64,000 bases of DNA from Hysterium pulicare CBS 123377 (Eukaryota; Ascomycota; Dothideomycetes; Hysteriales; Hysteriaceae). Below the pieces are notes generated by a model. That model did not search any database. It had not been told where the DNA came from and saw only the letters and a program-made list of their open reading frames with translations. Below are positions 21,801 through 49,363 of this stretch, one piece after another. The position numbers and the translations under genes are program-made. Every line of letters begins with the position of its first letter. The stretch's first letter is position 1. The DNA is taken from NCBI GenBank assembly GCA_000467715.1, contig AJFK01001090.1:186001-250000 (forward strand), given 5' to 3'.

Positions 21801-23896
21801 TCGAACAGTGAGCCTGCGCTTGCTAAAGGTGAGCCACATGATAGCTCGCCTGGCCAAATCTCGCTCGACTTGGTATCCTTCTCCTATCAAGTTGGAGATC
21901 CGATCATACATAGACTCCAGTCCTTCCGGCATGGTGACGTTCTCGATGACTTGTATCCTTTGGCTACGGGTGAGAGCCGCGGAATTTAAGTAAGTGATCA
22001 TCAAGCGAGCCCAAAGAAACATCCCATCTGATCCGGTGTCCAGATGTTTAACAAGTCCTTCAGCATTTGCATGGAGAGGAAAGAGCCCTTGTGCTCGCAA
22101 ACGATTCAATTCCAGTGTTAAGTAATGATGGATATCCTTCGAAGTCTGCCTGCCTATCATCAGCGTTTGGTTTTTGGGAACTGTCCGAGAAAGAGGGAGG
22201 ACGGTTGGCCTCCCAAATAAAAGAAGCTTGATCGCAGATCCTTGTTTGAGCTTCAATAATTCCTCGATGAGTACGGAATGGTCCTCGCACTCGTCGATTC
22301 CGTCTAAAACGATGAAACACCCTTCACAGTACTTGGCGTACACACGAAGGAGTTCGCAAAGATGGGTTTGAGAAGCCGTCATCTGGCCACCGGATGCTTC
22401 CATCATCGAAAACAGAAACTTATCGGTCACACTGTCATCTTCTCGATGAAGCTGCAGGATTTGTGCGAGGATGGATCGAAGTGCAGCAAGCGTCGAGTTC
22501 ATGGTTGAGGTTGTGGACCTAAAGAAGAAGTACAGAACGTCAACTTTGACGTCACTAAGCATCGCGTCCTTCAGGTCCGCCACAACAGTAGCAGCCAGAA
22601 CCGTTTTACCGAAGCCAGGATTCCCTTCGCTATGTCAGCCTATGTCAATCAGTCTCGACAAGCAACCCGCTTACCTTGAATCCACAAACACTCCTGGCCA
22701 AACATTCTAGAATCCGAGCTCTCGGAACGGGATTCTTTCCATTCATTAAATGTCGGATCATCAAAGATCCAATCTGCTGTGCCATTTACACGAGAGTCAC
22801 GTGCTTTTTCATACTCTTCCTGGAATTCGGGCGGTGAAAGCCAATTTCGGAGATGTACAGTAGTGTCGACTAAGCAAGGTGGGATGAGCAGGGAATCTCG
22901 CAATAATTTGAATGACTGTCGTGCTTACCATTACGGCCTTGAGTTATCTCAGACTTCATTTCTTCCATACTCTGCCCTCTGCGATTTGTCTCGTCCATCT
23001 CCTCATTGAGCTTAATAAACTTTGCTTTCATTTCTTCATAGCGTTCTTCGTCCATGGCTTGCTTAAACTCATAATGTTGTCGTCGGGTCTCCTCGAATCC
23101 TTGCCGTTCGGTTTTGGCATCAGCGAGACCTTCCAGTACTCGCTTGTTGTCTTCCATTTCAATACGGATATGATCTAGCTGAACTATCTCAAGCAGTACA
23201 TTGCGATGCAACTCTATCTGCTTAAGAATGTCTTCGAAACGCACATCAAAGGGTTTCCATGCCAGACTAGCCATGACCATTGGTCGATGTTTTGGCTCTA
23301 AAAACTAAGATTAAACTTATGATGGGTTCGTGAGAAGTAATGACTCACTCCCATTTTTTAAGGTGAAAACCCGAGCTACGCTATGTAAGAACTCAAAGAG
23401 ATCTACATAAACATTGCACAAAGTCTTTTTGACCTGATCCGCGAAGTCTTCCTTGTGGCGACTCTTCGATATGCGTTCTATCAGATCATTCTGAGGAAGT
23501 CGGAGTGCAAGACATTCTAACATTCGAGTGAGCTTATCGAAAAAACCCGTATAGTTGCTGGCCAGCTGAGCGATGTCTTAGCACAGATGAACAGTTTGGT
23601 AGTGTCTAGATGAGATGAACAACCTGCAAGACCAGCCGGATTGCACCCCACGCGAGGGCTGCATACTCCGGATTGGACTGAACGGTGATACTGATAACTT
23701 CAAAATACGGCGCGAGTCTATCACTCAACTGCTTGAGCCGTGAAATGAGTCCCCGACCACGTACGCGGTCTTGAGAAACTGCCTGAAGTGTTTGGGCTTC
23801 TTTCAGGAGTTGGTCAGCGGAGGAGCACGCAGAGTAAAGAGAGTTTTCATCGGGCGAAAGTGAGTCCAGAAACCGTTTGTGCGCTTCTTTAAACAC
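18885..23896 (-). CDS. NACHT-domain NLR (STAND protein) with DUF7708-like N-terminus and WD-like C-terminus
   Basis: A large multi-exon gene. The N-terminal exon (23896-23606) carries a DUF7708-like domain with the AALAWGAIRLVLQ signature. A coiled, charged region follows (about 23280-22929). Exons 22869-22675 and 22624-20884 join to form the P-loop GNPGFGKT. Further on are the Walker B-like segment FIVLDGIDECE and the LLFGRPTV sensor region of a NACHT ATPase, then winged-helix-like and helical repeats. The C-terminal exons (about 20755-19941 and 19882-18885) contain WD-like segments such as GFSFAGQLYLWAY. Fungal NLRs oligomerise on ligand binding and trigger heterokaryon incompatibility or antimicrobial cell death. 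The first exon (start probably in 23897-24035) and the joins near 23550, 23300 and 20800 are not resolved. Splitting into two genes at 20.8 kb is possible but less likely. Confidence 0.75.
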
Positions 23897-28197: not shown

Positions 28198-30217
28198 CTA
28201 CCGAGCCGTAAAGCTGCTCTTAAGCAGCTTGTCCATACTGAACTTCTTAATAAACGCACTAGCCACCAACCCACTCGCAGCAATCGCAGTCATCATAATA
28301 AAGACACTCCTAAATCCATGAACATAAGCTTCAAGCACACCCAGACGCGCAGGATCATCCAGCTCCATCGTTCGCAAAACAGCAACGTAAGCTTCAGACT
28401 CATGCGCGATAGACACGGGGAGTCCAAGACTACTCAGCTTCGAACTCATGGCGTTTTGGAAGATTGTGCTGGAGAGTGCGACGCCCAACGGCATCCCCAA
28501 ACTCCGCATGAACCCGTACATACTCGCCGCCATAGCGCTATCCTCGATCTTCGAGATAGCTTGGATACCGAAGTTCGTGCTCGATAATACCATGCCGCTT
28601 CCGATACCGAAGATAGCGAGCACGACGGCATGGACGACCTGTTTCGTGTGCAAATCGAGCAGGAGAAGGAGACCCGAGCCGATGGTTGTGATGGCGTAGC
28701 CGATCCAGATGGCCCAGCGGAATCGGCCGATTCGGGTTGTGACGAGTGAAACGACGACGCTTCCAGGGAGGAGGAAGAATAGTGCGGGGAAGAGATCGAT
28801 GCCGCTGCGGGATGGAGATGCGGATTTGACGGACATGAAGTAGAAGGGCATGTAGTAGACGCCGGTGAAAAGCTGTAAATATATAATTAGGTCCAAGCTC
28901 CATAGGTAAGTACGTTGGTATGAAGAGAAGAACTTACCAAAAGGCCATTGCCCATGGCACAGTAGAAGGCAGCAAATGAGGAAGGACAGTAAAAGAGTGA
29001 CAAGGGTATGAGTGAGTGTGGAGAAGCTTTCATTTGCCACAGCACAAAAGCAGCGACGGTCGCAAGACCAATACAGATTGGAGCCAAAGTCTGGACACTC
29101 GTCCAAGGGTGCTGAATGCCGCCCCAAGAGAGTCCCATGAGAAAGACCGTTGAACCTCCGATGAAGAGGAAAGCACCAAGCCAGTCCGTTTGCTTTAGCT
29201 TTTCCGTAAAAGAGAGTTTCTCGACGGCGCTCAATTTGAAGAAAAATCCGACCAGGATAAATCCGACGAAGCAGAACGGGAAGTTGAGGTAGAAGATCCA
29301 TCTCCAATTGAGGTGTTGACATAGGGCTCCGCCCACCACTGGTCCGATGATCGAGCCTGGTCACGTAGTGAGTCGAGTTATTCGGCGTTGAGGTATGAGG
29401 CAAAGGTACTACTCACCAATTGACCAGGCACCCAGAACAATGGAGAAGTACTGCGGACGCTGCCTTAGTGGCACAATGTCACAAAAGATGACCTGAGATA
29501 GGGTGATGATTCCTCCGCCGCCGATGCCTTGGATGCTTCTCCCAACTAGGAGAACCGTGAAATTATTCGCTACGCAACATATTATAGTGCCGACGGTGAA
29601 GAACATAAGGGAAAGGAGGAGTAAGTATCGCCGTCCGAAGAGCTGGGAGATGGAGGCCACGACAGGTTGGAAGACGGCACTCGACAGCAGGTAAGATGTG
29701 CCGGCCCAGAATGCATCGGTAGATGTTCCATGCAGTGCTGTTGCGATCGACTATGAAGACGTGGGTTAGGATCGGTTGATACGAAGACATGAACCTCGAA
29801 GACGCGAGCTTAACTTACAGGAAGGACCGTGACTAGTATAGTAGCATCGAGGGCAACCATCAATGAGATGGTCGACAAGCTGAGCATGATGACCCATTCT
29901 GCCCTTTGAGGTTTCCATTCTTGAGGCGTTTCCAATTCTCCCTTCGCTTCAGTATCGACAAATGAATCTGGTTCCGCTGATGATTCTTTTGTGTCTGGGT
30001 CGAAGAGATTTCGCACACTACAGAATTCAATGGATTTTCCGTCCACTGAATCTTCCTGTACTGATACTGTTGTGTCTGACTTGAAGGAGAAATGCTTCTC
30101 CTTCATAGACGTCTCGGTTCGGGTTTCCATTTCTGTGCTTTGTACTAATGTGGGTAGTATGGGATGCATGGAGATTGACTTGGCACATTCAGGAACAGTC
30201 ATTTCGGTATTGAGCAT
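28198..30217 (-). CDS. Major facilitator superfamily drug:H+ antiporter, DHA2 (14-helix) type
   Basis: Four exons (30217-29819, 29750-29417, 29356-28938, 28872-28198) give 608 residues. A charged cytosolic tail of about 105 residues precedes helix 1 (WVIMLSLSTISLMVALDATI, with the D of DHA2 motif D1). The motif A region reads SQLFGRRYLLL, motif B reads VGRSIQGIGGGG, and motif C reads GSIIGPVVGGAL across intron 2. Fourteen hydrophobic segments are consistent with the DHA2 group, which exports toxins, mycotoxins and fungicides from the plasma membrane. The nearest gene that could be a partner is the TMEM53-like hydrolase 1.75 kb away on the other strand, but no cluster is evident. Substrate unknown. 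Confidence 0.92.
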
Positions 30218-31969
30218 AAGAGAGAGACAAGCCAGATCAAAGAAGAAGAGAAAGAAGAATTAATTTGTGAAAATACAACCAGAAGACCCCTTCAAAAGCC
30301 ATCGTTATGATAGCGAGACTGTTCATTTATCCCTCGACAGAGCGGTCGGTCTGGCCCTATGCCCAAAGATCCTTTACCGTGCAGCAACAGTACGTAGACC
30401 CTGGCGCAGCAACGCGCTTCTCTTAGTTCCAGCATTCTGGTGATAGCATAAATGCGGTTTATCAGGACAAGGCCGGCACCTAATAAGGATTTCAAGGGAA
30501 CTCCGAGCGCCATGGCGTTCAGCCACAATTGCCGTATTAGGACTGGCTCTAACCCGAGCCGGGCTGTGACAGCCCTGGCAGCTGAATGCAACGACGTGGC
30601 GGCCCACGTGCGGGTTCCAGAACCAGTCTTGTAGCGCTGTGCTCCATCGGCATTTAGACGACCCGACTTTAACCTAGATGCAATCCGTCTTAGCAGCAAC
30701 TATTATCTGTAGCTAAAGACTCGCTCTTCAGCCTCTACTAGCTGTCTTCCAGAATCCAGTGTTTGAATATTCAGATCAGGCAGAAGAAGGATGAACAAGT
30801 GGGAACGAGGTAATAAGAAGCGAAGTCCATTTCAAAATGCCACGAACACAGACAAACAATTGGCAGTGAGAGACGATGAAAACCATCGTGAAACCGATGA
30901 GGCTGAAGGATGGAATGTGGCTCAAGTGTGGCTGGCTCATTCACCCTCGCTTAGAGCTGAAGGCTTGTTTCCTCGCCAGCGTCTTGTCAGCCGGCTGCAT
31001 TCGTCTCAACAAACCCTCCACCCTTCCTTATTTGGGCCGGCAATCCATCTGACCGCCTGTGGGAGAATGATATCCACCCCGCCGTAGCCGACATTCGCTA
31101 CTTAGCGGGGCGCCCATTAGCCTTGCCATTAGTCTCGTCGAGGCTGGCTATGCAGACCACCTTGACCCTTTGGTTTTGTGGTTGTCCAGGTGTATGGGAC
31201 ACGCGGCACCGTAGCGCTCAATAATCTACCAGCCTCTTGTTCCCGACGAGAGGATTAGCTTGTGTAGTGCACGGTTCCTTCAGCCTTGTCCTCCCTGTGG
31301 AGATCAGAGATACGCACTGGCCAAGGGTTGAAGCTCCAGTATTCGACTTTGTTTACTCTGTACAAAGGATTTCTCTATCAACAAGCACGTAAACGAAATT
31401 CTGGAATTACATGTTTTATTCTATAAAGAGGGTCTACAAAAGTTTCAGAGAATTGCCTTACCTTTGACGGTCAGAAGCCCTTCGATGCATTGGGTTTAAG
31501 GCCGCCGCGCTAAAAATGCGTGCACGCTGCGTTGGAAAGACGAATAAAGGGATAGCCCTGGACCTTTGACAGCCTTAGTTTAGCAGGGTCTTTGTTAGCA
31601 TGGAAGGTTGTCTGGTCGATAATGGATAGCAGTCTAGTCTCGCACATGTCCGATTGCGTATTTCCACATGATACAGTGGTCTGAGGGCATACGTACCGCA
31701 CTCCAGCTTAATTCATATCTTCAGCTTTAATACTTCAGCCTCGTGGCGGCGGCTCCGCTACTGGCACTATGCTAGTCCTGTCCAGATTGATCAAAGTCGA
31801 TTTGTTATCGTCAGGGTCTCTATACCGGTGTCCATTATATATTCTCTTGTCATGTTTATCATTGCCTGTCTCGGCTCACTCAAATCTATCAATAGCATTT
31901 TACCATCTTCTCAAGGCATATAGCCTTTCGTTACATTCTATTCAACCCTATCTTTATATTCCCACCACA
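30218..31969. other. Intergenic, 1.75 kb, no supported gene
   Basis: Divergent promoter space between the MFS gene (minus) and the TMEM53-like gene (plus). A 135-codon minus frame at 30292-30699 sits in a GC-richer patch but has no motif. I looked for transposon ends, terminal repeats and RNA genes and saw none. Confidence 0.5.
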
Positions 31970-32893
31970 ATGGCCCCCTCAAAACACCCTTTCATTCCAG
32001 GCTTCACGCGCGTTGCCCCTACAACTTGGGAATACATCCCCGACCGAGCCTTCGATGAAAACTCCACAATAGACTCCACAATCTCCACCTCGCCCGACCT
32101 AATCCTCCTCTTCTCTTGGACAGGTGCCAACGGCCGCCATGTGTCCAAATACACCTCGACCTACCAAACCCTCTTCCCCAACACGGCCATAATCGTCATA
32201 ACCACCACCATCAAAGACCTCTGCTTCCGCTCCAGCACCACAAAGCAAAATACACTTCAGCCAGCACTCCAACACATACACTCGACCTACGGCAAACTTT
32301 CCAGCGTCCTCCTGCACTGCTTCTCCGAAGGCGGCTCCAACAAAGCCGTAGAATTCACCGAAGCATACTACGCCTCCTGCGGCTCTATACTCCCCGTCAT
32401 GGCTATGTGCCTCGACAGCACGCCCGGGACCCCACGGTACAAGAATCTCTGCTCCGCCTTCTACAAGACGCTTCCGCGAAACATAATTTTTCGTGGCACG
32501 GGCCTCGTCATCGGCGGCGTCGTGCTCGGCGGTTGCTGGATCCTCTATGGCTGCTTCAAGGGGTATGAGAATAATATAATTTCGAAGACTAGACGCAGGA
32601 TTGAAGATGAGCGGTTCTGGGATCTGAGCAGGCCGAGGTGCTATATGTATTCGAAGGCGGATAATTTAATTAGTTGGGAGGATGTTCAGCAGCATGTGGT
32701 TGAGGCGGCGTACAAGGGTGTGCCGGTGTATGATGTGTGTTTTGAGGAGTCCGGGCATTGTAATCATGTCAAGGAAGATGGGGATAGGTATTGGGATACG
32801 GTGACGGCGGCTTGGAAGAGCGCGATTCTGGATGAGAAGATGAAGATTGAAGGGCAGTTCCTTTATGCTTCTACTATTGGTTTGGCGTTCTGA
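31970..32893 (+). CDS. TMEM53/DUF829 (PaxU-like) alpha/beta-hydrolase
   Basis: A single exon of 307 residues from the ATG at 31970, which has a good context (CCACAATGG). The frame is open 67 codons further upstream, but that part looks non-coding. The fold is recognisable by the LILLFSWTGANGRHVSKY opening, the nucleophile motif CFSEGGSN, the acid in YSKADNLI and the histidine in ESGHCNHV. The family includes PaxU, encoded in the paxilline cluster, and nuclear-envelope TMEM53. A hydrophobic stretch at about residues 180-200 could be a membrane anchor. The biochemical reaction is not established for the family. Neighbours do not make an indole-diterpene cluster, so a specialised role is not supported. 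Confidence 0.88.
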   Translation: MAPSKHPFIPGFTRVAPTTWEYIPDRAFDENSTIDSTISTSPDLILLFSWTGANGRHVSKYTSTYQTLFPNTAIIVITTTIKDLCFRSSTTKQNTLQPALQHIHSTYGKLSSVLLHCFSEGGSNKAVEFTEAYYASCGSILPVMAMCLDSTPGTPRYKNLCSAFYKTLPRNIIFRGTGLVIGGVVLGGCWILYGCFKGYENNIISKTRRRIEDERFWDLSRPRCYMYSKADNLISWEDVQQHVVEAAYKGVPVYDVCFEESGHCNHVKEDGDRYWDTVTAAWKSAILDEKMKIEGQFLYASTIGLAF

Positions 32894-34803: not shown

Positions 34804-35174
34804 ATGTATCGACGCGCTATTCTCTTCGTTGCCGCTTTCGCTCTCTCCACCTTGGCTGCTCCTATCCCAATAGCTTCTTCTACTAGCTTGAGTACCAGTT
34901 CAGTCATCAATAGACATTATGCAAGGACCGCCACCCACGCTGGGGTACGTTGTTCATATCGTCGTAATATGCCTTCATCCGTTAACAATGGTTGCAGCTT
35001 ACCGCTCGGAATATTGAGGACATCAATTCTGAAGATGGAGACACTCTTGATACCACTGAAATTAGTTCGAAAAAGAGGAATGAGGAAGAATTTGCTCGGG
35101 GTATTGTGGACATCAATTCTGAAGATGGAGACACTCTTGATACACCCGTGATTAGTTCCGAAAAGAGATCATAG
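34804..35174 (+). CDS. Secreted repeat precursor with Kex2-type KR sites (KEP/RiPP-like)
   Basis: Two exons (34804-34944 and 34998-35174; 53-nt intron with GTACGT and GTTGCAG sites) give 105 residues. A signal peptide (MYRRAILFVAAFALSTLAAP) is followed by a Ser/Thr-rich spacer with a possible R/K processing site. Two copies of a 30-residue unit come next, each starting with AR, containing the identical 11-residue core DINSEDGDTLD, and ending in a dibasic KR (ISSKKR and ISSEKR). The second KR is two codons from the stop. Such signal-repeat-KR layouts are those of Kex2-processed repeat proteins, which include precursors of fungal ribosomal peptides and pheromone-like peptides. The core is acidic and lacks Tyr, unlike ustiloxin-type cores. 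No UstY-type gene is seen nearby, so modification is not implied. Confidence 0.8.
35019..35169 (+). repeat. 90-bp period internal repeat within the precursor gene
   Basis: Two units of about 63 bp start 90 bp apart (near 35019 and 35109). Their first 36 or so bases are identical and the rest differ at a few sites. The DNA is more conserved than codon constraint requires, which points to recent duplication or gene conversion. Confidence 0.8.
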
Positions 35175-35549: not shown

Positions 35550-38106
35550 TTAGATCCAACCAGGCGGAGGCCGATTTTGTCGAATGTTGGATTCCCTTGG
35601 GGAAAGCAGATTTTCGGAAACCCAGCAGCCTTTGTTCGGCAGCAACTTGACCCTCAGCTCCTTTGCTTTAGCTCGCGGCGTACCCGCAGATGTTGAGGCA
35701 GTGATCTTTTTCTGCATGTCGTCTGGGAGGCCGTAGAGAAGGGTTGCGATGGCCGAAGTTTTCCAAACGCCTACTTGGTCTTTTTCTCTTGACGTTCTGA
35801 TGATCGTAGCAACGAGGAAGACTAGGCTAATAAAGAGGAGGCCGAGAGGCAAGGAAAGCCATTCCCAACGGACTAAGACAAACGTCTCTTTGCCAAAGGC
35901 CGTGCCGGGAACCATTTCATTGCTGGATGATGATCGAATCACGTTCGTCATTGCTGTAGCCAGTCTTTCCATGTGGAGAGAAACGTTGTTCGGGGGTATC
36001 CATGGGTTGAAATCGAAGGTGCGAAGCATAGGGGAGCCATTTTTCACAGCAACTTTAAATCTCAACCAAGAAACCGCGGAGGAATTAGCAACTGTAGCGA
36101 ATGAGGGGAACATTTCGTCGAAAAGGAGATTGGTTTGAAGTGCTGTGACGTTAGACACCCCAAAACTAGAAGCATTATAACCATTGGAAGAAGCGTCGAC
36201 AGTGATATTCTGAAGATAATGTGTGTCAGTGCCGCCGTTCACTGGGGTAGCCTGCCATGGATAAGGTCCCGAGGTAGTATTTAAGAATGTATCTATCACT
36301 TCTTCTGCATATTCCGCCCAGTAGTAAGATGATTCGAATGTCTTGACACACCAGGAGAGCACGCATTCGTGTGCAACGGGAGTCTCGTTTCGATAAACGC
36401 TTGCAGGCCCATTTGCAGCGCCAACAATCAAAAAATCACTAATGGGATTGCGGAAGTGTTTGAAGTTGATTGTACCACCAAATAACGGCTGCCTCAGTGG
36501 ATTGGTAATAAGTGGCAAAGCGCGCATCATTAGAGCTTCCCCTGCTGAAGACTTGACAGGACCCACTCTGTACCCTGACATAAGTACTGGGGCGTTGCTC
36601 GTAGCATTGAGGAAATATCCGCACACGGTTCCATTCGGATACGTAGATTCGGTGCCGAGTCCGGTCAAGTTGGCGAGCCAATCAATGCGTGTCGTGAGGC
36701 ACGTAAATGTGAGGAGTTGGGAAATATCAGCGCAGGCGCTGCATATTCCGAGGGTTTCGTACGGCAGCCACGTGCAATTACTGGTAGGGCAGGAGAGAGG
36801 TATATCCGGCCTTGTTCCATTGCCAAATGGCACTGGTTGGGTACCATTTTCGTAGAAAAACTTTTGCACTATAGGTTGGATTTCTTGATCTTGCTGGAGT
36901 ATCCTCTGTCCGGCACTAAACATGGTACCATAGTGAGGCTCATAGCGGGTGACTTTGGGAATCGAACTATTTCCTTGCAGCGTCCAACGCTCCGGGAAAG
37001 CGACGACCTGCTGAAAGAAAGGATCGAGAGCGAGCGAAAGCAAAGTCACGGAGGCTCCAAGTGCTGCTAAAGTCCTGAAAATGATGTATTTAGTATTAGT
37101 CCTTGTCGCGTAGTTAACATTCGAATCAACAAAGGGATACATACTTGCACTTCGTGCGGATTAAGAGTAAAAAGCAACCCCACGGTCCCCGAGAAGCATT
37201 ATCGAATATCTCAAAATCCCACATTTTCTTTGGGGCACCTTGGAACCAACTCCATTTCAGTTGACCGAGAGCCTCGGACGTGGGGAGAACGAGGGCGGCA
37301 GAGGCGACCTTGGAAAGGATGGCAATGTACGCGTTTAATGTAAGGCCAATTGGCCACTTAGGTAATCGTTCATCTCTGAGGCACAAAAGGACTCCAACAA
37401 TGGTACTCATGCATAGAGCACTAATCACCCAGCTGATGATTTCAAGCAGCCATTGTTTGACAACGTTCCGGGATGAGTTGTAACGCCATAGCCTTTTCTC
37501 GATTCGTTGGGCAATGTTTGGTGAAGATCCGTCCTCTTTACCCATTTTCGATTCAATTGTGAAAGAGGGCAGATTCAATGGAGCATTTGTGATCCCAAGG
37601 CCAGCATCGAGGCAATGTTCAGGTTCTGAGTCGGGTTTCTCCGCGTTCTGGGGAGGGCATCCATCAGTGCGAGTCTGCGGTCTCTCTGGAAACCGTTGAT
37701 TTGCAGCAGAATCCGGCTCTCTAGGTAGGTTGCTACCCACAACTAACTCTCTTCTTATCTGAGATCCAGTCTGGTTAGGAGCCCGCTTGGTCAATGTTCC
37801 AAGTACATTGCTACCCTGACTGTCGTCGGCAGGAGGAACATAACGTATAACGGGGCGACGCGGCCGTCTCTGAGGTGTGGCTTGCGTTACTGATTTTGGG
37901 TTCTGAGCATTCATAACAGTTTTAGGTGATGAAACTGTAATGTAGTGGATGGCTCGTCCGCCAGGAGCGGCTTGCGTCGGAGGGATGTGGAGTGTTTTCT
38001 TAGTAGCTTTAAGGGCCGTTGGCGTTCTGCGCTCACCATGAGCTTCTCGGTATAGAGAGATAGATGGATATTGTGGCCATGAAGGTAGCTGTGATGGGAT
38101 TGACAT
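35550..38106 (-). CDS. DUF3176-family membrane protein
   Basis: Two exons (38106-37145 and 37074-35550) give 828 residues. A long, basic, proline-rich N-terminal tail of about 225 residues leads to the DUF3176 core: WLLEIISWVISALCM, then ILSKVASAALVLPTSEALGQLKWSWF, then the junction to LAALGASVTLLSLALDPFFQQVV. A long extracellular segment with many N-x-S/T sites and the CPTSNCTWLPYETLGICSAC cysteine motif follows. A last helix (LGLLFISLVFLVATII) and a short tail complete it. This four-helix layout with a large glycosylated loop is the standard one for the family, which is abundant in filamentous ascomycetes and has no assigned function. The splice is phase 2 with a 70-nt intron. Confidence 0.9.
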
Positions 38107-40053
38107 TTGAGGGAATTTGAATAAATATTGGTCTTGCTAGAAGAGCCAACCGCCCGATTCTCCTCTAAATTTTCGAAAAAGAAAATGCTCTCTCCATGAG
38201 GATTATAGTGAAAAGATAATGCCGGGTTAGACGGTCCCCAAAATGGAGAGCTATGATCGAAATGTTGACGCACGTGGAGAGAAAGCCGTGTTTTCGTTGT
38301 CTGCTTTGCTTTGCCTGCAACTACCACTAAATTTGGGGCTGATATGTCTTTGAATGAGCTATGATTATCGATGTAAGAACCAAAGGCGCGACATCAAGTC
38401 GAAATCTTTCGCTGGCGTGAGCAGTATAAACGAGAAGGTGCCGTAGGGGTGGGGCCAGGTAACCATAAACAAATCTTGCCGCTTGAAGGTTACCGAGATC
38501 GGTTTCAAGCAAGGGTAGGCAAGAGTGAAAACGATTGGTAGCTGCATGAAACACCATAAGATGTTGTAATGTGGAGCGTGCGTGGCATAATCTGGATTAA
38601 ACGCATTGCTAATGCCGAATTCCGGTCAGCGTGAGTCTAAACGCAGGAGCTTGCCTAAAAACAAGCCAAGGGATAAGGCTGAAGCTTGTTTTGTCAAAGC
38701 TGGGTGAGGCAAAGGGCGTCGGATCTCTTCAGACCGGGACAATTGACCTAACTCAGCCCTACCGAGACGAAATTAAGCGCTGGGAGCTAGAGTGACCCAT
38801 AATGCGCAAGGTATAGGCGCCAGAGTATACATTTTTATCTATCTATATCCTGCGTTAGCTCGTTGTTGAGTCGGATTGATGATGAAATTGTGGCACAGCA
38901 TGTGGGCGGCTACATCTCGTCATGCATACTGAAACCATCTCGGGAAAGCCACTGTAAGAAACGAAAGATGCGAGAAGAGAGTTGTCGAATGGATGTAATG
39001 ATATAGTATGTTGACCAACACGGGAAGAAATGACTATTTGTCTCCAGTGAATGGATGTCGGGATGATGTTTTAGCTTCGAGCTTTAGCCTTGGAAAGTGG
39101 TTAGTCGCGCTACGTAAGCGAGGATCTAACTATTTTTGGAACATATCTCGGGTGTCCTGCCATCGATGTATGCATCAATCATTTCTTCTAGAAGTCCGTA
39201 ACTATCGTTGTATACTCTATTGGGACAATATTGATCACAACTGCCCTCAGTTGTGAAGCCAGAGCAGTTGCGTTTCGGAGATACCCCGCGTACATAAGCA
39301 ATTTGTACCCAAATATATCCATGGCCCCCACGTGAATCTGTGAACGTCACTATGCAGGCTGGCGCTTATAACAGCTGAAAAGTTAATAATATAAGGGATC
39401 GACAGCAAGCGCGTAGCAGGCTTCCATGTTCTCTGCCAGAGCCGCACTCAATCTAATCGCCTACTAGAACATTTGCTGAACGGTGTACAGATTTGCAGGG
39501 TAGTCCATGAAAACGTTCGAAGGGACTTCTTTTCTTCTATAAACGGCACACTGGGGCTGTTATGCTCGCTATTACTTCTAAGAATTAGGAGGACGTGAGG
39601 AGTACTTTTGTGTGAATTAAGTAGGCAACTTGAAGAAGAGTTTGGTAAAGTTCAACGACGCGTAAGCGGCGATTATCTTTAAAGATCTCGTTTACGTTCT
39701 GATTTATTCTATATTATGACGGTGTTCTTTTTGATTTCTCTTCCGTTTTCCCTTTGGTTGGGGTTCTCCCTGGTTTGGGTAGGTAACGTCAACCCTTAGT
39801 TTCATAAACGTTGCAGATTGTCTTATATGATCCGATGTCGACTATCCTTGCTACGTCTTGACGAACGGTGAGTTGGAACATATTTAGACTATAAATAGAC
39901 ATCCGATGTGTTTGATTTCGAATAGGTAGTCCACAAAACGTCTAATGCCCAAGTAGGAAATCATTATATCATTTATCATTTATTCATCGACGTTATGTTG
40001 CGATTACAGGTGAGAAGTAGGTATTCGTAATCCCAAATATCATTCCAAATAAG
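38107..40053. other. Intergenic, about 1.95 kb
   Basis: No supported gene. Minus frames at 38327-38557 and 39126-39447 are short and motif-free. The region contains mildly AT-rich patches (39.5-40.0 kb) but no repeat family or terminal repeats that I can recognise. Confidence 0.5.
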
Positions 40054-41257
40054 TCAGGCTTTCTCCAAATCCACCGCAGAGTCCGTCGTGCTACGATTCA
40101 GCCCGCCAACCAAATTAATAGTATCAAGAGGATACATCTGATCCACCGGGTCCGACAACTTCCTGAAATTCTTATTGTCGACTTTATTCGGACTTGAGAT
40201 GACGGGCTGCCAATGTATTCCACCAGAGTTTTCGGATGAACTTCCCGTCTGGTGCGTCCGAAAGCCCCGGATGGAGTTCCGTACCCATTGATACGCCGAA
40301 GATTTTAGGCCGAGGCGGATGACCGGGCGCATTACTGGAAGACATGCGTTGACGACTCCTAAGAGAGGCTCGACGATAGACCACATGCCCAAGTCGGCGT
40401 AGGAATACGAAAAGTCCTGAAAGTCCATCCGGATGATGTAAATAACTCGGAGAAGTGAAACCACGCAGATGCTACGGATCTTTAGCTTCTTGAACAGGTG
40501 ATCCTTAAGGTATGACGTTGAAACACTTACACTGCTCCCAGGCTGAACATCGCGATAACTCCGAATTTCTTTGCCGATGGCATTCGCAGCTGAAACAACA
40601 TGGGCATCGGCATTATAACAATGAAGACGTCAATGATGAGGTTCAGAGCGCCGGCGATGACGTAAGTCTCCTGCGCATGCTTGTCGCAGGTGCCTCTAAT
40701 CGCCTTGTCCCAATTGAATTGTACAGGTTTGCATATTAGGAACGTCTCCAAGAGGACTGAGATAAAGTAACACATCGAAACGGCCATGGCCCCAAAACAC
40801 ACTCTCCGAAAGCGTTCATCCGGAAAGATCGTAAGATAGAGATGGAGAATGGAGAACTTCACAGAGGTATTTGCTGCTCCCCAGACTGGCTGTCCGGCAG
40901 TGAAAGCGACGAAGACTCGGCTTCGGTATCTTGGATCAATATCGCGCATGTGATAGCCCTTGCCGGACCAAAGCGATGCTGCCAAATGAAAATACCTGTC
41001 AGTTTTTTCGCTACTCATCCACACCGTTCTCGGAGTCAACACTTACACGTTAATGCAATGGCAAATAGGCTGGTGCAGAAAAACAGTGCCACCAGAATCG
41101 CGTAGTCATTGAACGCAAGTCGCTTTCTCTTCACTGAGCGCGCCCATAAGCGCAGCCAGACAGCTATTATCGCGAAAATTTCCAAAATGCCAACTAGTAT
41201 AGTCTCTTTCAAAGCAGGGTTGGACACGCGAGAGGATGGGAACTTGTATGAAGCCAT
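40054..41257 (-). CDS. PTH11-like/rhodopsin-domain seven-helix membrane protein
   Basis: Three exons (41257-41047, 40978-40531, 40471-40054) give 358 residues. Seven hydrophobic segments can be traced. The first (LVGILEIFAIIAVWLRLWAR) carries the typical WLRLWAR ending. The third contains KFSILHLYLTIFP. A later one begins with the TYVIAGALNLIIDVFIVIMPMPML segment, the N/D-x-x-D-x-x-I-x-x-x-P hallmark of this family, followed by MWSIVEPLLGVVNACLP. No CFEM domain precedes the helices. Fungal members are putative receptors or integral membrane proteins of unknown ligand, some linked to host surface sensing. The C-terminal tail is disordered and Ser-rich. It is transcribed away from the GMC gene with a 0.9 kb shared upstream region. 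Confidence 0.88.
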
Positions 41258-42162
41258 TGCAATGATCGACAGGCACAAGGTTTATTGGGTATAGGAACAG
41301 CTTGAATTGATTAGGTTTAAGGGTTGAGTCGGGACCCACTCTCGTCTTATAGAGACAGGGAAGACTACGCACATAACATTTAAGATGGTTAATGGGGGTC
41401 GCACTGCTTACATCCTGTTTCTTGATATTCATGAGTAGGGTGCAACAAATGTTTGCCGACGGCTTGAACAATGTCTTTCTGCTCCAATCGTGTAGAGATG
41501 GGCGACGTGAATGTTGGCGGAGGATTCTGCGTGTCAGCAGAAGATATGCCATAAGGCAGTCCATCTGCGAGCTTCAACTACAAGGATAAGCGAGTCTGAC
41601 ACCCACGGCCTACTCCTGGCGAGGTCGACCATACAGTTGAATGTCAAGGGTAGCGAATTGAGTCGGAATCTCGGCGTGTATGCGCTCGCACTTGCAACTT
41701 TTACTTTTGCGTCCATAGTCAACGCAACAATCGCTTTGTAGCGGAAGGGTATGGTGTCCAAATGGTGGAATGAGGCTTGAAGGCGTTGTTTGGGGGCGGC
41801 ATCGTCTTATGATAGCACACTTGCATATAAGCAACAGGTGGGCATGTATTGCTTTTGATCCGGAAAGTCCGGAGTTGTTGTGGGTCGCTGGACCGGCCCG
41901 TATTGCGGAGATCTGTATATGATCACCAAGCACTTGCATGATGTGGAGTGAAGTAGTTGTGTGTCGGTGTCCGTGTTGATGCACAACACACTCCAATGAG
42001 GCGCGGACCACTCCGCCTCCTCTAAGCGCAGTCCTTCTCGCGTATACTTGCATGCTGCGCAATCGAACGTATCTTGTCAATTTCAACGATTCACTTTTCA
42101 AGTACTTTGTTTTCCCAACTGTTGACTCCACTCAGCTTATTCTCTCCAAGACTGGGAAGCTA
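41258..42162. other. Divergent intergenic region, PTH11-like / GMC genes
   Basis: Shared upstream region of two divergent genes. Minus frames at 41389-41577 and 41610-42131 are open but overlap each other on the same strand, have no motif and are not supported as exons. The GMC frame itself is open back to an ATG at 42052. Confidence 0.5.
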
Positions 42163-44025
42163 ATGGCGGATAAGCGGTACGACTTCATCATCGTAGGCGG
42201 AGGTACAGCGGGACTTGTACTTGCCAATAGGCTCTCCCAAGACGACAATGTCTCTGTGCTAGTAGTAGAAGCGGGTGGTAACGGTGATGAAGACCCAAGA
42301 GTTATGGTTCCCGGCCTTTTCAGGACAAACGCTAACACCGAAAACGATTGGGCTTTCACTACTGTTCCTCAGGTAGGTCCCCAAAATGGCGGTGCTCTCG
42401 CGTGAATACTCATGATTCTATAGAAACATCTGAATGGAAGAGTCATCAACCATATGCAAGGGAAACTGCTTGGGGGCACAAGCAGCATCAATGCTCAAGC
42501 TTTGATTCTGCCATCGGCATCCGACCTGAATGCTTGGGAGAAGCTCGGAAACACCAACTGGAACTGGGAGACTATGGAGCCTTACCTGAAAACATTCTTC
42601 ACTCTTAGCGAGCCAGAGGAATCCACCTCTGAGCGTCTGAACCTCGCTTGGTCGAAGGATTCTTGGTCAGAGGGGGATACCTCCACTCTTGGAGGTCCGG
42701 TCAAAGCTTCATTTACCGATGTTCAGGAGGAAGGTGCCTTAGGAGCCGCCTGGGTTCAAACCTTCAATAACCTTGGATACCCATTGATGCATAGTCCTTT
42801 CGACGGCGCTTCAACTGGACCGTACAATGGCGCGTCTACGATTGATCCAGTTACCAAAACGCGGGTCTCCTCGAGTAATGCGTACTACCATCCAGTGAAG
42901 AACCGGAAGAATCTCGAGGTTCTGACAGGTTGCACCGTTGAAAAGGTTCTTCTTGAGCAGAACGGAGTCAACGGCTACACTGCAATCGGTATTCAATGCA
43001 CCCAAGGGGAAGAGCGACTCATAATCAATGCAAAGAAAGAAGTGATTCTGTGCGCTGGTGTCTTTCAATCCCCAAAACTACTCGAATTATCCGGTATTGG
43101 CGACCCTGACGTCCTAAGCGGCCACGGTATCGATGTTAAAGTCGCCAATCCTTATGTGGGAACTAACCTGCAAGACCATCTGATGCACTCTATCAGTTTC
43201 GAGACCCAGGACGGATTCCCTACAAGAGATAACCTGCTCCGTCGAGATCCGGCTGCCATTCAAGCTGCGATGGGTGCCTACAAATCGAATAAGCTTGGAC
43301 CTTTCTGTAGCAGTGCCGTCACGAGCTTTGCGTACCTTCCCCTAGACGACTTCAAGAAGGATTTTCAGCAGCGGGACTCCTTCCTGGACCAGGTTTCGGT
43401 AAGTAGCACGAAGCATCCGCTCGATCATCACCGCCTTTCTGTGCTTAAAACCCTCATGCAAAACCAGAAGGAAGGCACTGCACAGTACTTTCCGTATGCT
43501 GCTCAAGCGACTCTAGCGCAAGGTTCCATGCAGCCAGGAAATTTCATCACTTTTGTTGTTGCCCTTTCCCATCCCCTTTCAAGCGGCACAGTCCATATTT
43601 CCTCTGCTGATCCTTCGGTAAAACCAACGATTGATCATCAGTACCTTTCTCATCCCCTGGACATAGAGCTCCAGGCCCGGCATGTCCGCTATATCGAGAA
43701 AATCGCAGCAACGGAGCCGCTATCAACTCTCCTTAAGCCTAACGGACTACGAAACCATCCTGCGGCCTTTATCAGGAACGATCTCGAAAAGGCCAAAGAG
43801 TACGTACGGCTTGCTGGAACTACCAATTGGCATTCCGTTGGAACGTGTGCCATGGCTCCGAGGGAATCTGGAGGGGTAGTCGATCCGGAGTTACGCGTTT
43901 ACGGTGTCGGCAATTTACGGGTTGTAGACGCGAGCGTCATGCCTCTCATTCCCCAGTCCAATACCCAGAGCATGGTGTATGCTATTGCGGAAAGGGCCGC
44001 CGATATCATTCGAATCAGAAACTGA
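42163..44025 (+). CDS. GMC-family FAD-dependent oxidoreductase
   Basis: Two exons (42163-42372 and 42424-44025) give 603 residues. The FAD-binding Rossmann motif IIVGGGTAGLVLANRL is at the N-terminus. The GMC signature 1 region reads GKLLGGTSSINAQA. The catalytic pair appears as H540 in NWHSVGTCAM and N583 in QSNTQSMVY, the His-Asn form. The family oxidises alcohols (glucose, aryl alcohol, choline and others) with O2 or quinone as acceptor. There is no signal peptide, so an intracellular role is likely. The ATG at 42163 places the Rossmann motif at the usual distance; the in-frame ATG at 42052 would add 37 unconserved residues. The intron is 51 nt. A GTAAGT inside exon 2 near 43398 is not used in this model because the frame stays conserved through it. 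Confidence 0.92.
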
Positions 44026-44928
44026 AAGATATCAGCTGATGGTTATATCATCCTGCCTACCTCTAGCAGAGGAAAGTTTCGTTGCTCTGAACATTAATCA
44101 TTCATGCTACGGTAGAGGCTTCATGCATCTTTATCTTTTTCGTACAGCCTTCTACTTGATGCCAAATCCCGAGGAAGAGATTACATGCACCTTTAAACAA
44201 TTACGATCTCGGTCTTCTTGAATTCTCCTGGCGAAAAAGGAGCGGACGGAAGCGGGGTGTAAATATGGGAAAAGGTGTGCCTCAACCATGTGAGGCCTAG
44301 GTCGAGCGCTGGTTGACTGGAAGAATAGATTTCTGCATGGCTCACAGAATTGATCATAATGAAGCTGTTCGATCGTTTCCACTCCTTCTGCTTGTGCTTT
44401 CAAGAATCAGTCATCCAAGGTGCCTCTGAAATGCCGCCAGGAATCCACGTATTTCTGAACACAAGCCGGCCATAATAACTCCCGAGAGAATGTCTCAATA
44501 GTGAAACTGCGGACGATGACTCAGACTGGGAGGATCTATAACAAATGTTGGTGAGAACTGTGGACGCGTTGGACAAGGACACGGACTTGAGGCTCTAACC
44601 TTGTAGGCTTCTAGCGGACCCAGATACAGCAAAATTCGCCTTGGCAGGGGTTAAGTCGCTCACGTGATTTCGCGAACCGGTATCCACGGATTCCGCACTA
44701 TTTATATCGAAAGTTGAATAGGTACAGCTGCGTTACCTTGTCAATAGACATTTAAGACTGGCCGCTCCCGCGTTCTCCTTCCTTTATCACTCATCTATAC
44801 CTACAAGTGCTCCCATTTCATTACCGAGCAGACATATCTGCAACAAACCCAAATCCAGACTCAAAAAACCAACTTTCAACACTCATATCTCTAAAACATT
44901 CTCCTAAATAACTCCCTTTAAGTCAACA
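44026..44928. other. Intergenic, GMC gene end to DUF7704 gene
   Basis: No supported gene. The last 150 bp before 44929 are CT-rich with a typical fungal leader. A TGACTCA heptamer lies at 44517-44523; several such heptamers are expected by chance in 64 kb. Confidence 0.5.
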
Positions 44929-45390
44929 ATGTCTCAACACTCCATCCCCCCAATCTACCGCTTCAGCTTCACAATCCTCGACCCCCTCATCGCTCTCACC
45001 GGCGCCACAGTCGTCTTCTTCTCCCCGTCAACCGTAATGTCCTCGTTCCTCCCCACCGCCTCTCCCGCCAGCATCCCCCGCGATCAACTCTTCATGTACC
45101 AACAACACGCCTCCGGGCTCTGGACCATCGCCTTCCTCATGGCCTTTTAACTGAGGTATACGAGTGACATCGGGGTGTGGAAATTACTACAGGCGGCCGT
45201 GAGTATTACGGATATTGCCGCGCTTTGGAGTATTTGGCATACGCTGGACGCGCAGGGCAGAGGCAGTATTGAGGCAGTTTTGGGGGCCGAGTGGGGGAGT
45301 ATCGTGGTGTATGTCCTCATCCTGGTTTTGAGATTGAGCTTTGTTGCGGGCGTTGGGTTAGGTGGGGGTAAGAGGACCAAGAGTGCTTGA
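44929..45390 (+). pseudogene. DUF7704-like membrane protein gene with an in-frame stop
   Basis: A 153-codon frame that is intact except for one TAA at 45148-45150. Before it come a PPIYRFSFTILDPLIALTG start and a second hydrophobic segment ending IAFLMAF. After it the same frame continues directly with LRYTSDIGVWKLLQAA and then two more helices (DIAALWSIWHTL, and IVVYVLILVLRLSFVAGVGLG). Together these make the four-helix DUF7704 layout known in fungi. The residue at the stop is usually Leu or Val, so TTA-to-TAA is the simplest change. Because the downstream half keeps its helices and glycine pattern, the loss is recent, or the stop is read through, or the base call is wrong. Function of the family is unknown. 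Confidence 0.75.
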
Positions 45391-45674
45391 TATTGAGGTT
45401 AAGATGAAAGAGATACCTTCATAAAGGTCTCGAGATCGAGCGTTTCTTGGAGCAGTTGAGAGCGAGTGGAGGTTGAACTGAGTGGAGGGATGGCCAATGT
45501 ACATGGATTTGATGGAGGGTTAGAAGGAGATCGGAAATGTGACGATTGCATGTGTTGCTAGGTTCGAGAAGAAGAGAACATGCGTGATCTTTGAGTTACA
45601 AAGAACAGTGGCATCTTACATTGCTGTACCGCATCTATAGTAGTCCCGGATTTTATCTATCCTTTCCCTTTTTA

Positions 45675-48600
45675 TCATGCAACGCCTCTTCTCCCACCAA
45701 CCTTCTTCATACCCTCTCTCATTTCTTCCGTCACTTTGATAGATGGTAGTTCAATCTCTCCCTTTTCATCGGGCTTGGGCATGAAGCCAAGCTCGATCAG
45801 ATACGCGACATAAATTCCAATCTCACGCTCAGTTACCGCGCCGCCAGCACTACGGTCTTCACCGGTCCAAGCAGCATCTAGCTTGAGCGCTTTTGTAGCG
45901 TTGTCGTCATCCAGCTCTGGAGCCCTGGTATCGGCGGGTAGGGATCCAGTTACGAAGTGGTATAGGGGAAGTAATGCGTGCTCCTCTCCATCCCCTTGGT
46001 ATGCGACATAGTTTTCCATTGACTTTCTCCATTCGTCATAATCGACCATTGGCACATTGTATCCGTATTTCTCCAGAGCGCCAACAAACTCATTGAAGGT
46101 GATGCGCGGATGCGAGGTAATCTGTGCAACGCCGAGAGGCTCTACAGGAGCATTCAAAGAGGCAGCGACGACAACTCGAGCAACGTGCGTGACTGGGACC
46201 ATGTTGATCGTGTTCGTGATATTGGGTCGGCTGTGGAGCTGGATGCAGCCCTTCAGCATTCGAATCAGAAAGTCATCCGTGTTGGTTGCTGATGAAAATA
46301 TTAGTTATAGTTCGCATGTGAACTGACAAGCGGCCACTTACTTCCGGCTTCTGGATCACCAGTCACATATCCGGGCCTGATGATACACCCATTCAATCCC
46401 TTCTCTCCTGCTTGGCGCACTAGATATTCAGCAGCCCATTTACTCTGGCCATATCCCGTCCCAAGACCTTTCCTTGAGCCTTCTAAATCATCCGCCTCGC
46501 TAACGCCATGACCACCTTTTGCCAAGCTTTCCTCCGAGGCTTTGACATAGTGTTCGTTGTCCAAGACTGAAGTTGAGCTTACAAATCCTAAGCTTTTAGG
46601 CTTGCCAACAGTACATAGTGACAGTGCTGTCATGGTGCTGAGGACATTGGGACCGCGTAGTCGAGAGTAAGGCAACACCCAGTGAACTAATGCGCCGTTG
46701 TGAACGATGACATCCACTGTGTCGGCCAACCTATTCCAAAGGTCCGGCGACAGGCCGAAATTTGGTTGTTCTAGATCGCCGACAACACACTCAAGACGTG
46801 AGCTCCATTGGTCTTTCCAGATTCCGTAGGCCTGACATGTCTGCTGAATTCTGCTGGTGGCGGCTTGTGAGTCTTTGGCTCGCACTAGAATGATCACATT
46901 GCCGGATGAGCGTGACAACAGATCTCGTAATATGTATGCGCCAAGAAAACCAGTACCACCTGTTAAGAGTGTTGTTATCTTCTCCCCTGGTTTAATGGGA
47001 TCCCTCTTAGCAAATGAAGTTAGCTGCTTAGCAAGGTCTCGTGCATCAGCGGAATAATCTTCATCCTCCGGTATTTCATCCGGCTGCTCAGCAGAATCCA
47101 ATCTTAGTCCTATAGGGTCTAGAGCTTGGTCGATGCTGGCCGAGAAGCCCCGAAGGGAGGGATGTTGGAAGATGGTATTCATGGGTACGTCAACCCCTGT
47201 CCACTTTTGTCTGACCTTCAATAGCATCTGCTGAGCAATGATACTGTGGCCGCCCAGGTCAAAGAAGGAGTCTCTACCGCTGATGCTGTCCGCGTCTACG
47301 CCACGAATGAGACCACCCCAGATTTCTGCCACGGACTTTTCTGTAAACGTAAGAGTCTTCCCAAGTTGTGAGGGCCTTCTTGTTCCGGCTGCTGCTAATT
47401 CCTGGGGCTCGGGGAAAGGTAGCGCGGGGCGATCAATCTTTCCATTGGGGTTTAAAGGAAATCGGCTGAGTGGAACGAGAACAGATGGGACTGCATAAGC
47501 AGGTAGTTTCTTTTTGAGATGCTCTCGCACGTCGTCTCGCAGGTATCGGAAGCGCTTCAGCATCCCCACCATACTTGTGTCAGTTGAGCTATCTGTCACT
47601 CCTCTTTCTTCTAGCCATTGCTGCCATCGTTTCATTTCAGGAACAATGTAGCCTTGGAAAATTAGTCTACGTGCTGAAAACCATGATATGGATGTTTACT
47701 TACTGACAAGATTTGGTTCTTCGTAAGCGTCGCGTTTGAGTAAAGTGACGTTTTCGCGAACCAACGGATGTGCAGCCAAATGAGAGTCAATTTCTCCTAG
47801 TTCAATTCGAAACCCGCGTATCTTTACTTGATTGTCGACTCGGCCTGTGCAGTGAACGTTGCCATCTGGGCCGTAATGACCTAAGTCACCAGATCTATAG
47901 AGCCTGTCTCGAGGACCTTTCCAGTATTGCCGCCACGGTTCGGGTTTCCCTTGGCTCTCTACCTTTTTGTTGTCTTCGTCAACCCATTTCTTAGGGTCCA
48001 CGAACCAATTCTCAACGAACTTCGTCGCCGTCAGATCTGGGAGGCCTAGATATTCTTCTGCCAAACCTCCAGCCCGGACATATATTTCGCCGCTCTGACC
48101 AACGTCGCAAGTTTTATTTCGGTCCTCTCGATCCACAACTAACAATTGAACATTGTTCATTCCTTTTCCAGCTGGAATGACCTCACCTAGACCATCAAGG
48201 AAATCCGACGCTTCATTCCGGCTAGGTAGCTCGTAGTAACTCACGGCTCTTTGAGTCTCCGTAGTGCCATACATATTCACAATTCGGACATTGGGCGCAA
48301 GATCCTGGAGCCTCCTGCAATCTCTTTTAATCAGTAAGTCACCAACGAAAAATGAATGATGTAGGCTTTCAAATATCGCAGAAGCCCCTCCCACCAGGAT
48401 CTGACCCATGGCTGGAGTAAGATGAGTCACGGTAGCTCCATATTTGCGCATCCACTCCGCAAGTTTCTCATGCTGGATGTCTTCCTTGGTCGGAACCAGT
48501 AATTGCGCACCAAGGAATAGCGGTGTGAAGATATCTCTTTGTATAGGATCATGTGCAATGCCCGATAACATCGTGAATTTATCTTTGTCCGATAACCCGA

Positions 48601-49363
48601 ATGTCTCGGCCATCCATGGGAAGTAATGGGTCAGGGAGAAGTGTCGCCCTTTGACACCTTTGGGTCTTCCCTCAGATCCAGACGTAAATGATAGCGTTGG
48701 TGTGGAGTCAGGTCCCACAAGAACTCCAGGAAGCTCTGCTTTCGATTTTTGCTGGTCTGCCAGGCAGTCGTGGCCATTCATGCTCCCACCGATGATTGTC
48801 CCATCGTCCTGTAACTGTAATCCTGGAACTTCGGTCCGCAGATTTAGGTGTTCCGAAATATATAATCGAACCTGCTCTGATAGGGGGCCGGCTTCCTGGG
48901 TGGTCTTGTCGATAACGACGAGCGCGCGAGGCTGAGAGACTTCAAGGTAAATGCATTGACGGTCTGGAGGATATCTGAAGAGTAGAGATTAGATCGTAAT
49001 TGATTGTATTTGGAAGTCAGGAGCTCACAATGGATCCAAAACCGAGAACGTAGCCCCTGCCGCAAGCACAGCGATGATAGCTACTACAAGATCTACGCCT
49101 CGATGTGCAAATATCATAACCACTTCTCCACGTTGTATGCCATTCTGAACGAAGTGGTGGGCCAATATCGCTGAAGCCTCGAAGATTTGTCCGTAGGTGA
49201 ATTTACGCTCCGGCGTCGTGCTTGAGGCTGTTTCCACGACGCATGGTCGATCTGGATGCTTTTTAGCATTTGCGGCGAAAATTTCGTGAATTGGTCCTTT
49301 GAAATCAGCCCAATGGAGGTCCGCTGTGGGATCCGGAAGAAGAGGCTGCTCTACTGAGCCCAT
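45675..49363 (-). CDS. LYS2: L-2-aminoadipate reductase (alpha-aminoadipate-semialdehyde dehydrogenase)
   Basis: Four exons (49363-49029, 48974-47704, 47652-46342, 46288-45675) give 1176 residues, within the usual fungal range. Domain order is adenylation, carrier, reductase. Visible motifs: [18 protein letters not shown] (A3, near residue 207), NMYGTTETQ (A5), YRSGDLG (A7), [20 protein letters not shown] (A8), [11 protein letters not shown] (A10), the phosphopantetheine site FFDLGGHSI (Ser near 670), and the NADPH motif [12 protein letters not shown] with YGQSK in the reductase. The enzyme activates, tethers and reduces 2-aminoadipate to the semialdehyde in fungal lysine synthesis and needs Lys5-type pantetheinylation. 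The first in-frame ATG is 49363; the frame opens slightly upstream without one. A TGAGTCA box lies 220 bp upstream. Confidence 0.96.

What the first reader, a model, noticed from the sequence alone, without database searches (positions are those of the whole stretch)
34804..35174. Small secreted repeat precursor with dibasic KR sites (possible undescribed peptide hormone or RiPP precursor)
Seen: signal peptide, two 30-residue units with an identical acidic 11-residue core (DINSEDGDTLD), each unit ending in KR, and the second KR two codons from the stop. Known: Kex2-processed repeat proteins and dikaritin precursors have this design. Inference: the secretory pathway would release one or two acidic peptides. 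The core lacks Tyr/Trp and resembles no ustiloxin, asperipin or epichloecyclin core that I know, so it may be a new type.
Basis: partly seen in the sequence, partly recalled or inferred. Interest (0 to 1): 0.75.

Follow-up and report, generated by a model that had tools for sequence, protein, structure and literature searches.

The report
Two-copy fungal secreted peptide precursor
A small fungal gene encodes a probably secreted protein carrying two copies of an acidic peptide next to protease cutting sites, so it likely releases short peptides; this is a common fungal design with a sequence we could not match, and its job is unknown.

Summary
Exons 34804-34944 and 34998-35174 (53-nt GT-AG intron) encode 105 residues: a signal-peptide-like N-terminus, then two copies of a 25-residue unit, AR-x-I-x-DINSEDGDTLDT-xx-ISS-x-KR, at a 30-residue period. 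Codon usage supports the spliced frame of exon 2. The repeat is the top-scoring tandem array in the window.

Linear acidic peptide(s) cut out by Kex2 is the best reading; a kexin gene is present. The dikaritin/RiPP reading fails: none of 43 UstYa-matching stretches in the genome lies on this 412-kb contig, and the units lack Tyr and Trp. Two UstYa-adjacent repeat precursors elsewhere in this genome carry 5 and at least 8 Tyr-bearing units. The KEP screens I read ask for three similar units; this has two, so it works like a KEP but fails that test. Only copy 2 lies between two dibasic sites; AR precedes both cores. The core is unchanged at synonymous sites too, so its identity partly reflects recent DNA duplication or homogenisation. 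No relative was found, but orphan KEPs are usual and no close genome seems to be held.

The parts
34804..34944 (+). Exon 1: start codon, signal peptide, Ser/Thr-rich pro-segment (47 codons)
   Evidence: the two upstream ATG of the open frame's span are out of frame
34804..34857 (+). Predicted signal peptide MYRRAILFVAAFALSTLA, likely cut before APIPIASS
   Evidence: 11-residue Kyte-Doolittle mean 2.57 at residues 5-15, highest of the first 25 windows printed; -3/-1 rule (recalled) met at LSTLA|APIP, and at four other places; no SignalP available
34945..34997 (+). 53-nt intron, GTACGT donor, TTAAC branch-like site, TGCAG acceptor
   Evidence: no transcript evidence; branch consensus recalled
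34998..35174 (+). Exon 2: both repeat units and stop
   Evidence: codon-usage frame tests
35004..35078 (+). Repeat unit 1: ARNIEDINSEDGDTLDTTEISSKKR
   Evidence: 64 of 75 nt identical to unit 2
35094..35168 (+). Repeat unit 2: ARGIVDINSEDGDTLDTPVISSEKR
35018..35053 (+). 36-nt stretch identical to 35108-35143 (core DINSEDGDTLD and edges)
35073..35078 (+). Dibasic site 1 (KR, in KKR)
35163..35168 (+). Dibasic site 2 (KR), one residue before the stop
35004..35009 (+). AR at the start of unit 1 (LTAR, fits LxxR); possible single-Arg Kex2 site
   Evidence: LxxR as expanded Kex2 motif in PMC8528282 (passages)
35094..35099 (+). AR at the start of unit 2 (EFAR); possible single-Arg site, does not fit LxxR

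Best explanation
A Kex2-type secreted peptide precursor with two units. Shown from sequence: signal-like N-terminus, two tandem units with C-terminal KR, a coding frame that fits splicing, a kexin-like gene in the same genome. Inferred: the precursor enters the ER, loses its signal peptide, is cut after KKR (residue 74) and KR (residue 104) in the Golgi by kexin, and basic residues are trimmed by a carboxypeptidase. This frees NEEEFARGIVDINSEDGDTLDTPVISSE and a longer N-terminal piece holding copy 1. If the Arg of the shared AR is also cut, two matched peptides of 20-21 residues result (NIEDINSEDGDTLDTTEISS and GIVDINSEDGDTLDTPVISSE). The peptides would be linear, acidic and without cysteine, acting outside the cell as a signal or in contact with other organisms.
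For: Gene structure; frame tests; tandem array of highest score in the window; of 863 stop-to-stop frames of 40 or more residues in the window, the only one giving two similar fragments in my dibasic-cut scan, a scan that also picked up repeat precursors in 2 of the 20 UstYa loci fetched; kexin-like frame with Peptidase_S8 and P-domain and one DPPIV_N match; no Pfam family over its cut-off; no confident fold for exon 2 (mean pLDDT 56.6, single sequence, so weak). Literature: KEPs were detected in 1345 of 1461 strains and 2560 of 7878 had no homologue (PMC7329392 abstract); products that appear to be cut after a single Arg were seen for three C. cinerea KEPs made in Pichia (PMC9769878 section 6).
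Against: Only two units, while the screens I read ask for three similar fragments. Only one unit lies between two dibasic sites. No STE13 signature (XA/XP) right after either KR. No orthologue, transcript or peptide. The identical core may be recent DNA homogenisation: zero synonymous changes over 6.7 synonymous sites, P about 0.013 given the flank rate. Exon 1 gives no codon-usage support.
Confidence: 0.52

Rival explanations
1. A small secreted, disordered acidic protein that works uncut (or only has its N-terminal pro-part removed); the 90-nt duplication is a recent slippage event without function and the KR pairs are incidental or mark pro-domain removal.
For: Only two copies; lack of synonymous change in the core points to DNA-level copying; two or more KR arise in about 1% of shuffles, which is uncommon but not negligible, and the second KR came with the duplication; LTAR and KKR could serve pro-domain removal (motifs in PMC8528282 passages).
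Against: Both KR and both AR are kept while 11 of 75 nt of the unit differ; cutting at the first KKR would leave a mature part of only 31 residues.
Confidence: 0.3
2. Not a functional gene: a decaying or spurious reading frame with no transcript.
For: No homologue; no expression data; exon 1 codon score near zero.
Against: Exon 2 codon score about 3 sd above wrong frames as a whole, 2.8 and 1.9 sd for each copy alone, and the spliced frame preferred over the unspliced one; signal-like N-terminus, splice signals and CAAAATG context.
Confidence: 0.13
3. Dikaritin-type RiPP precursor cyclised by UstYa proteins.
For: Signal peptide plus KR-ended repeats is the shared precursor layout.
Against: None of 43 UstYa-matching stretches in the genome lies on the contig of the window; no Tyr or Trp in the units; two precursors beside UstYa matches in this genome have 5 and at least 8 Tyr-bearing units.
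Confidence: 0.03
4. Alpha-type sexual pheromone precursor.
For: Kex2 layout; PMC6339444 section 24 says some alpha-pheromone precursors have fewer than the four repeats usual in KEPs.
Against: No Cys or Trp in the protein, both typical of filamentous ascomycete alpha pheromones (recalled); no XA/XP right after KR.
Confidence: 0.02

Closest known systems
KEX2-processed repeat proteins (KEPs; Le Marquer 2019 PMC6339444, Umemura 2020 PMC7329392, Vogt 2022 PMC9769878)
   Same: Signal-like N-terminus, short precursor, similar units each ending in a dibasic site, orphan sequence
   Different: Two units instead of at least three; first unit has no dibasic site right before it; core differs from the conserved Pezizomycotina cores listed in PMC6339444 section 10 (DADAATXYV[A/V]D, YVW[G/A][G/S], SPPHKT, QKLKVD, EDYXI). 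The surveys' tables of all KEPs were not seen
Dikaritin (ustiloxin/phomopsin-type) RiPP precursors
   Same: Precursor layout
   Different: No UstYa match on the contig, no Tyr in the units
Ascomycete alpha-pheromone precursors
   Same: Kex2 layout, may have few copies
   Different: No Cys or Trp, no STE13 dipeptides right after KR
Kex2 pro-domain-processed (K2PP) secreted effectors (PMC8528282)
   Same: Disorder-prone N-terminal part before KR or LxxR
   Different: Nothing suggests a folded mature part: no cysteine, no confident fold (single-sequence model)

Membership tests
KEP | N-terminal signal peptide | tested here: inconclusive
   Hydrophobic run and -3/-1 rule met; SignalP not available
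KEP | At least three similar units between dibasic sites | tested here: not met
   Two units; thresholds read (a second screen in PMC9769878 picked proteins by eye, without a stated number)
KEP | Units delimited by KR/RR/KK | tested here: inconclusive
   Unit 2 on both sides; unit 1 only at its C-terminal end
KEP | Kex2 cleavage releases the peptides | not testable with these tools
   Kexin-like gene present; no peptide data
Dikaritin RiPP | UstYa (DUF3328) gene close by | tested here: not met
   0 of 43 UstYa-matching stretches on contig C596, 412,304 bp
Dikaritin RiPP | Tyr in the core for cyclisation | tested here: not met
   2 Tyr and 0 Trp in the protein, at residues 2 and 39, both before the units (sequence); Tyr called mandatory for ustiloxins, phomopsin and asperipin-2a in PMC7329392 section 9
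Alpha pheromone | Cys/Trp-bearing core and XA/XP after KR | tested here: not met
   0 Cys, 0 Trp; NE and S follow the two KR; core signature recalled; STE13 signature read
K2PP effector | Folded mature domain after a Kex2 site | tested here: inconclusive
   Exon 2 product, AlphaFold2 from one sequence, mean pLDDT 56.6, no helix or strand of reportable length
EF-hand protein | EF-hand loop pattern in the acidic core | tested here: not met
   PS00018-like pattern (recalled) gives no match; no EF-hand family listed by Pfam at E 1 or below

The most novel reading that the evidence does not exclude
The founding member of an undescribed family of linear acidic fungal peptide signals made as a pair: each unit is freed by an N-terminal single-Arg cut (AR|) and a C-terminal KR cut, giving two peptides with a common DINSEDGDTLDT core and different ends, the core kept alike by gene conversion.
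Probability: 0.15. Interest if true: 0.5.

Novelty: new member of a known kind. Interest (0 to 1): 0.25.

Why it matters
If the peptides are released, this adds an acidic, Tyr-free sequence type to the secreted fungal peptides, whose functions are largely unknown (PMC9769878 abstract), and it shows that surveys requiring three units would pass over two-unit precursors of the same layout. The layout itself is common in fungi, so the general interest is modest without evidence of conservation or activity.

Tried and rejected
Homologue searches: full precursor (4 candidates, none at E 10 or below; only proteins of about 58-183 residues are candidates), exon 2 product alone (no candidate; about 32-101 residues), viral contigs (39 pattern matches, no relative), prokaryote genomes (118 pattern matches, no relative), own genome by protein and DNA: self only. 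An artificial 24-residue query matched nothing, not even the gene itself.

Rejected: dikaritin, alpha pheromone, EF-hand, CaaX pheromone (no Cys at all), unspliced product. Weak Pfam lines for the precursor (CIF E 0.049, Transglut_prok 0.13, DUF7155 0.2; all below their cut-offs) are taken as chance. A 5.8S rRNA search meant to place the species gave nothing. Rfam gave nothing at gathering scores, ARAGORN no tRNA. A literature search for three pieces of the core string found no paper, a weak test because sequences are rarely in running text. Two further literature searches listed nothing that I judged closer from titles and abstract starts; I opened none of those papers beyond the ones named. 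Papers: PMC6339444 outline and sections 6, 9, 10, 24; PMC7329392 outline, sections 9 and 13 and part 1 of 2 of section 6; PMC9769878 outline and sections 6 and 14; PMC8528282 passages only.

Full report
What is there. The gene lies between a DUF829 open frame (31712-32890 +) and a convergent pair of open frames (35553-37160 - and 37129-38136 -), of which the second has a DUF3176 domain and the first no Pfam match. Splicing 34804-34944 to 34998-35174 gives 105 residues: MYRRAILFVAAFALSTLA|APIPIASSTSLSTSSVINRHYARTATHAGLTARNIEDINSEDGDTLDTTEISSKKRNEEEFARGIVDINSEDGDTLDTPVISSEKRS. The bar is my best guess for signal cleavage by the recalled -3/-1 rule, which four other positions among those checked also meet. 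The intron has a GTACGT donor and a single AG, at its end. Codon usage trained on eight open frames of the window (4229 codons) gives exon 2 +0.177 bits per codon in the spliced frame and -0.094 in the unspliced frame; wrong-frame stretches average -0.050 (sd 0.070), true-frame stretches +0.084 (sd 0.063). Scored alone, so that the repeated core counts once, the two copies give +0.222 and +0.129, against -0.050 (sd 0.096) for wrong-frame stretches of 30 codons. Exon 1 is neutral (+0.011) and adds no support.

The repeat. Two 75-nt units at a 90-nt period differ at 11 of 75 sites, with a 36-nt identical run over the core. TRF ranks it first by score of five rows in the window. Placing 11 mismatches at random gives a run this long in 0.4% of trials, so the core is more alike than its flanks. 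Both kinds of change are absent from the 11 core codons: 0 synonymous over 6.7 sites and 0 nonsynonymous over 26.3 sites, while the 14 other codons show 5.0 over 10.4 and 6.0 over 31.6 (chance of none given the flank rates 0.013 and 0.004). Selection on the peptide explains only the second; local homogenisation of DNA or chance is needed for the first. These are two copies in one genome and the core was picked for being identical, so the test is weak.

Processing sites. KR occurs at residues 73-74 (within KKR) and 103-104; both units begin with AR (residues 50-51 and 80-81). Only unit 2 lies between two dibasic sites. Unit 1 is freed as a separate short peptide only if a single Arg is cut: LTAR fits the LxxR motif that PMC8528282 gives as the expanded Kex2 motif (passages); EFAR does not. 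PMC9769878 reports products that appear to be cut after single arginines for three C. cinerea KEPs made in Pichia (section 6), so such a cut is possible. The genome has one P-domain match, in a kexin-like open frame that also has Peptidase_S8 (827 residues of it in the locus), and one DPPIV_N match, which may be Ste13-like or another dipeptidyl peptidase. No Ste13 dipeptide follows either KR; the N-terminus after signal cleavage, APIPIA, would be such a ladder, a point not tested further.

Relatives. Own genome: one place only. In 5.8 billion proteins: none. Control: the neighbouring DUF829 frame finds 77 proteins at E 0.001 or below; 23 of the 77 rows bear an organism name, by my recall all filamentous ascomycetes, such as Polyplosphaeria fusca, Clohesyomyces aquaticus and Lophiotrema nucula; the highest identity is 60%. 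So fungi are held, but no near relative of this genome shows up for that gene, and a short fast-changing protein could be missed. The placing in Dothideomycetes, probably near Pleosporales, rests on those names and recalled taxonomy. Orphan status is ordinary for this kind of protein: 2560 of 7878 KEPs had no homologue (PMC7329392 abstract).

Against a RiPP. The UstYa search of the whole genome gave 43 matched stretches (exon by exon, so fewer genes), none on contig C596 (412,304 bp; the gene lies at 220,804-221,174). My dibasic-cut scan over the window and 24 loci found, besides this gene (also in L001 and L024), two precursors, both in UstYa loci (2 of the 20 UstYa loci fetched, each held with about 1.5 kb on either side of the match): L002 with five units of the type NFEADxMLQVDxxxSSYAxKR separated by four KR, and L009 with at least eight units around NWYADSASGVA (the frame runs off the locus); of its seven linkers five hold a dibasic pair and two only a single Arg. 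These precursors have more units, each with Tyr; the given gene has neither mark. PMC7329392 says 22% of KEP genes are accompanied by DUF3328 genes (abstract), so lack of one fits a linear peptide and is not unusual.

Membership. The screens I read require at least three similar fragments (PMC6339444 section 24; PMC7329392 section 13; PMC9769878 section 14, first method). Two units fail that. [quoted passage not shown] I therefore say that it works like a KEP with probability about one half, and do not file it as one; 'new member of a known kind' refers to the wider kind of Kex2-type secreted peptide precursors.

Surroundings. Within about 15 kb: MFS transporter pieces (28201-29412 -, below the Pfam cut-off, and 29412-29750 -, above it), DUF829, this gene, DUF3176, a fungal rhodopsin-domain protein (40057-41042 -, two frames), a GMC oxidoreductase (42424-44022 +) and an AMP-binding/PP-binding/NAD_binding_4 reductase (45678-48988 -, three frames). 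No peptidase, methyltransferase or UstYa family was listed for the 29 open frames of the window scanned with Pfam, out of 117 of 100 or more residues. A link with the neighbouring genes is not shown.

Verdict. A real, probably coding, two-unit secreted precursor of a common fungal layout, orphan in sequence, function open. The hormone claim is possible but without support beyond layout.

Noticed in passing
L002 (G000:C307:37243-40740), 3067-3411 +: Repeat precursor frame with five units (NFEADxMLQVD...SSYAxKR) about 1.1 kb from the best UstYa match of the genome (1501-1998 in the locus); likely dikaritin-type locus.
   Followed up: partly
L009 (G000:C37:26677-30519), 1-606 -: Repeat precursor frame with at least eight units around NWYADSASGVA, about 0.9 kb from a UstYa match (1501-2343); five of seven linkers hold a dibasic pair, two only a single Arg.
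   Followed up: partly
G000:C552:35707-43955 (L005, L011, L012): Three UstYa matches within about 8 kb on one contig.
   Followed up: no
window 40057-48988: GMC oxidoreductase (42424-44022 +) next to an AMP-binding/PP-binding/NAD_binding_4 reductase in three frames (NRPS-like, 45678-48988 -), with a fungal rhodopsin-domain protein at 40057-41042; possible small metabolite cluster.
   Followed up: no
window 20877-22634 -: NACHT/NPHP3_N domain protein, NLR-like.
   Followed up: no
window 34858-34875: After the likely signal cleavage the precursor begins APIPIA, three successive XP/XA dipeptides that a Ste13-type peptidase could remove.
   Followed up: no
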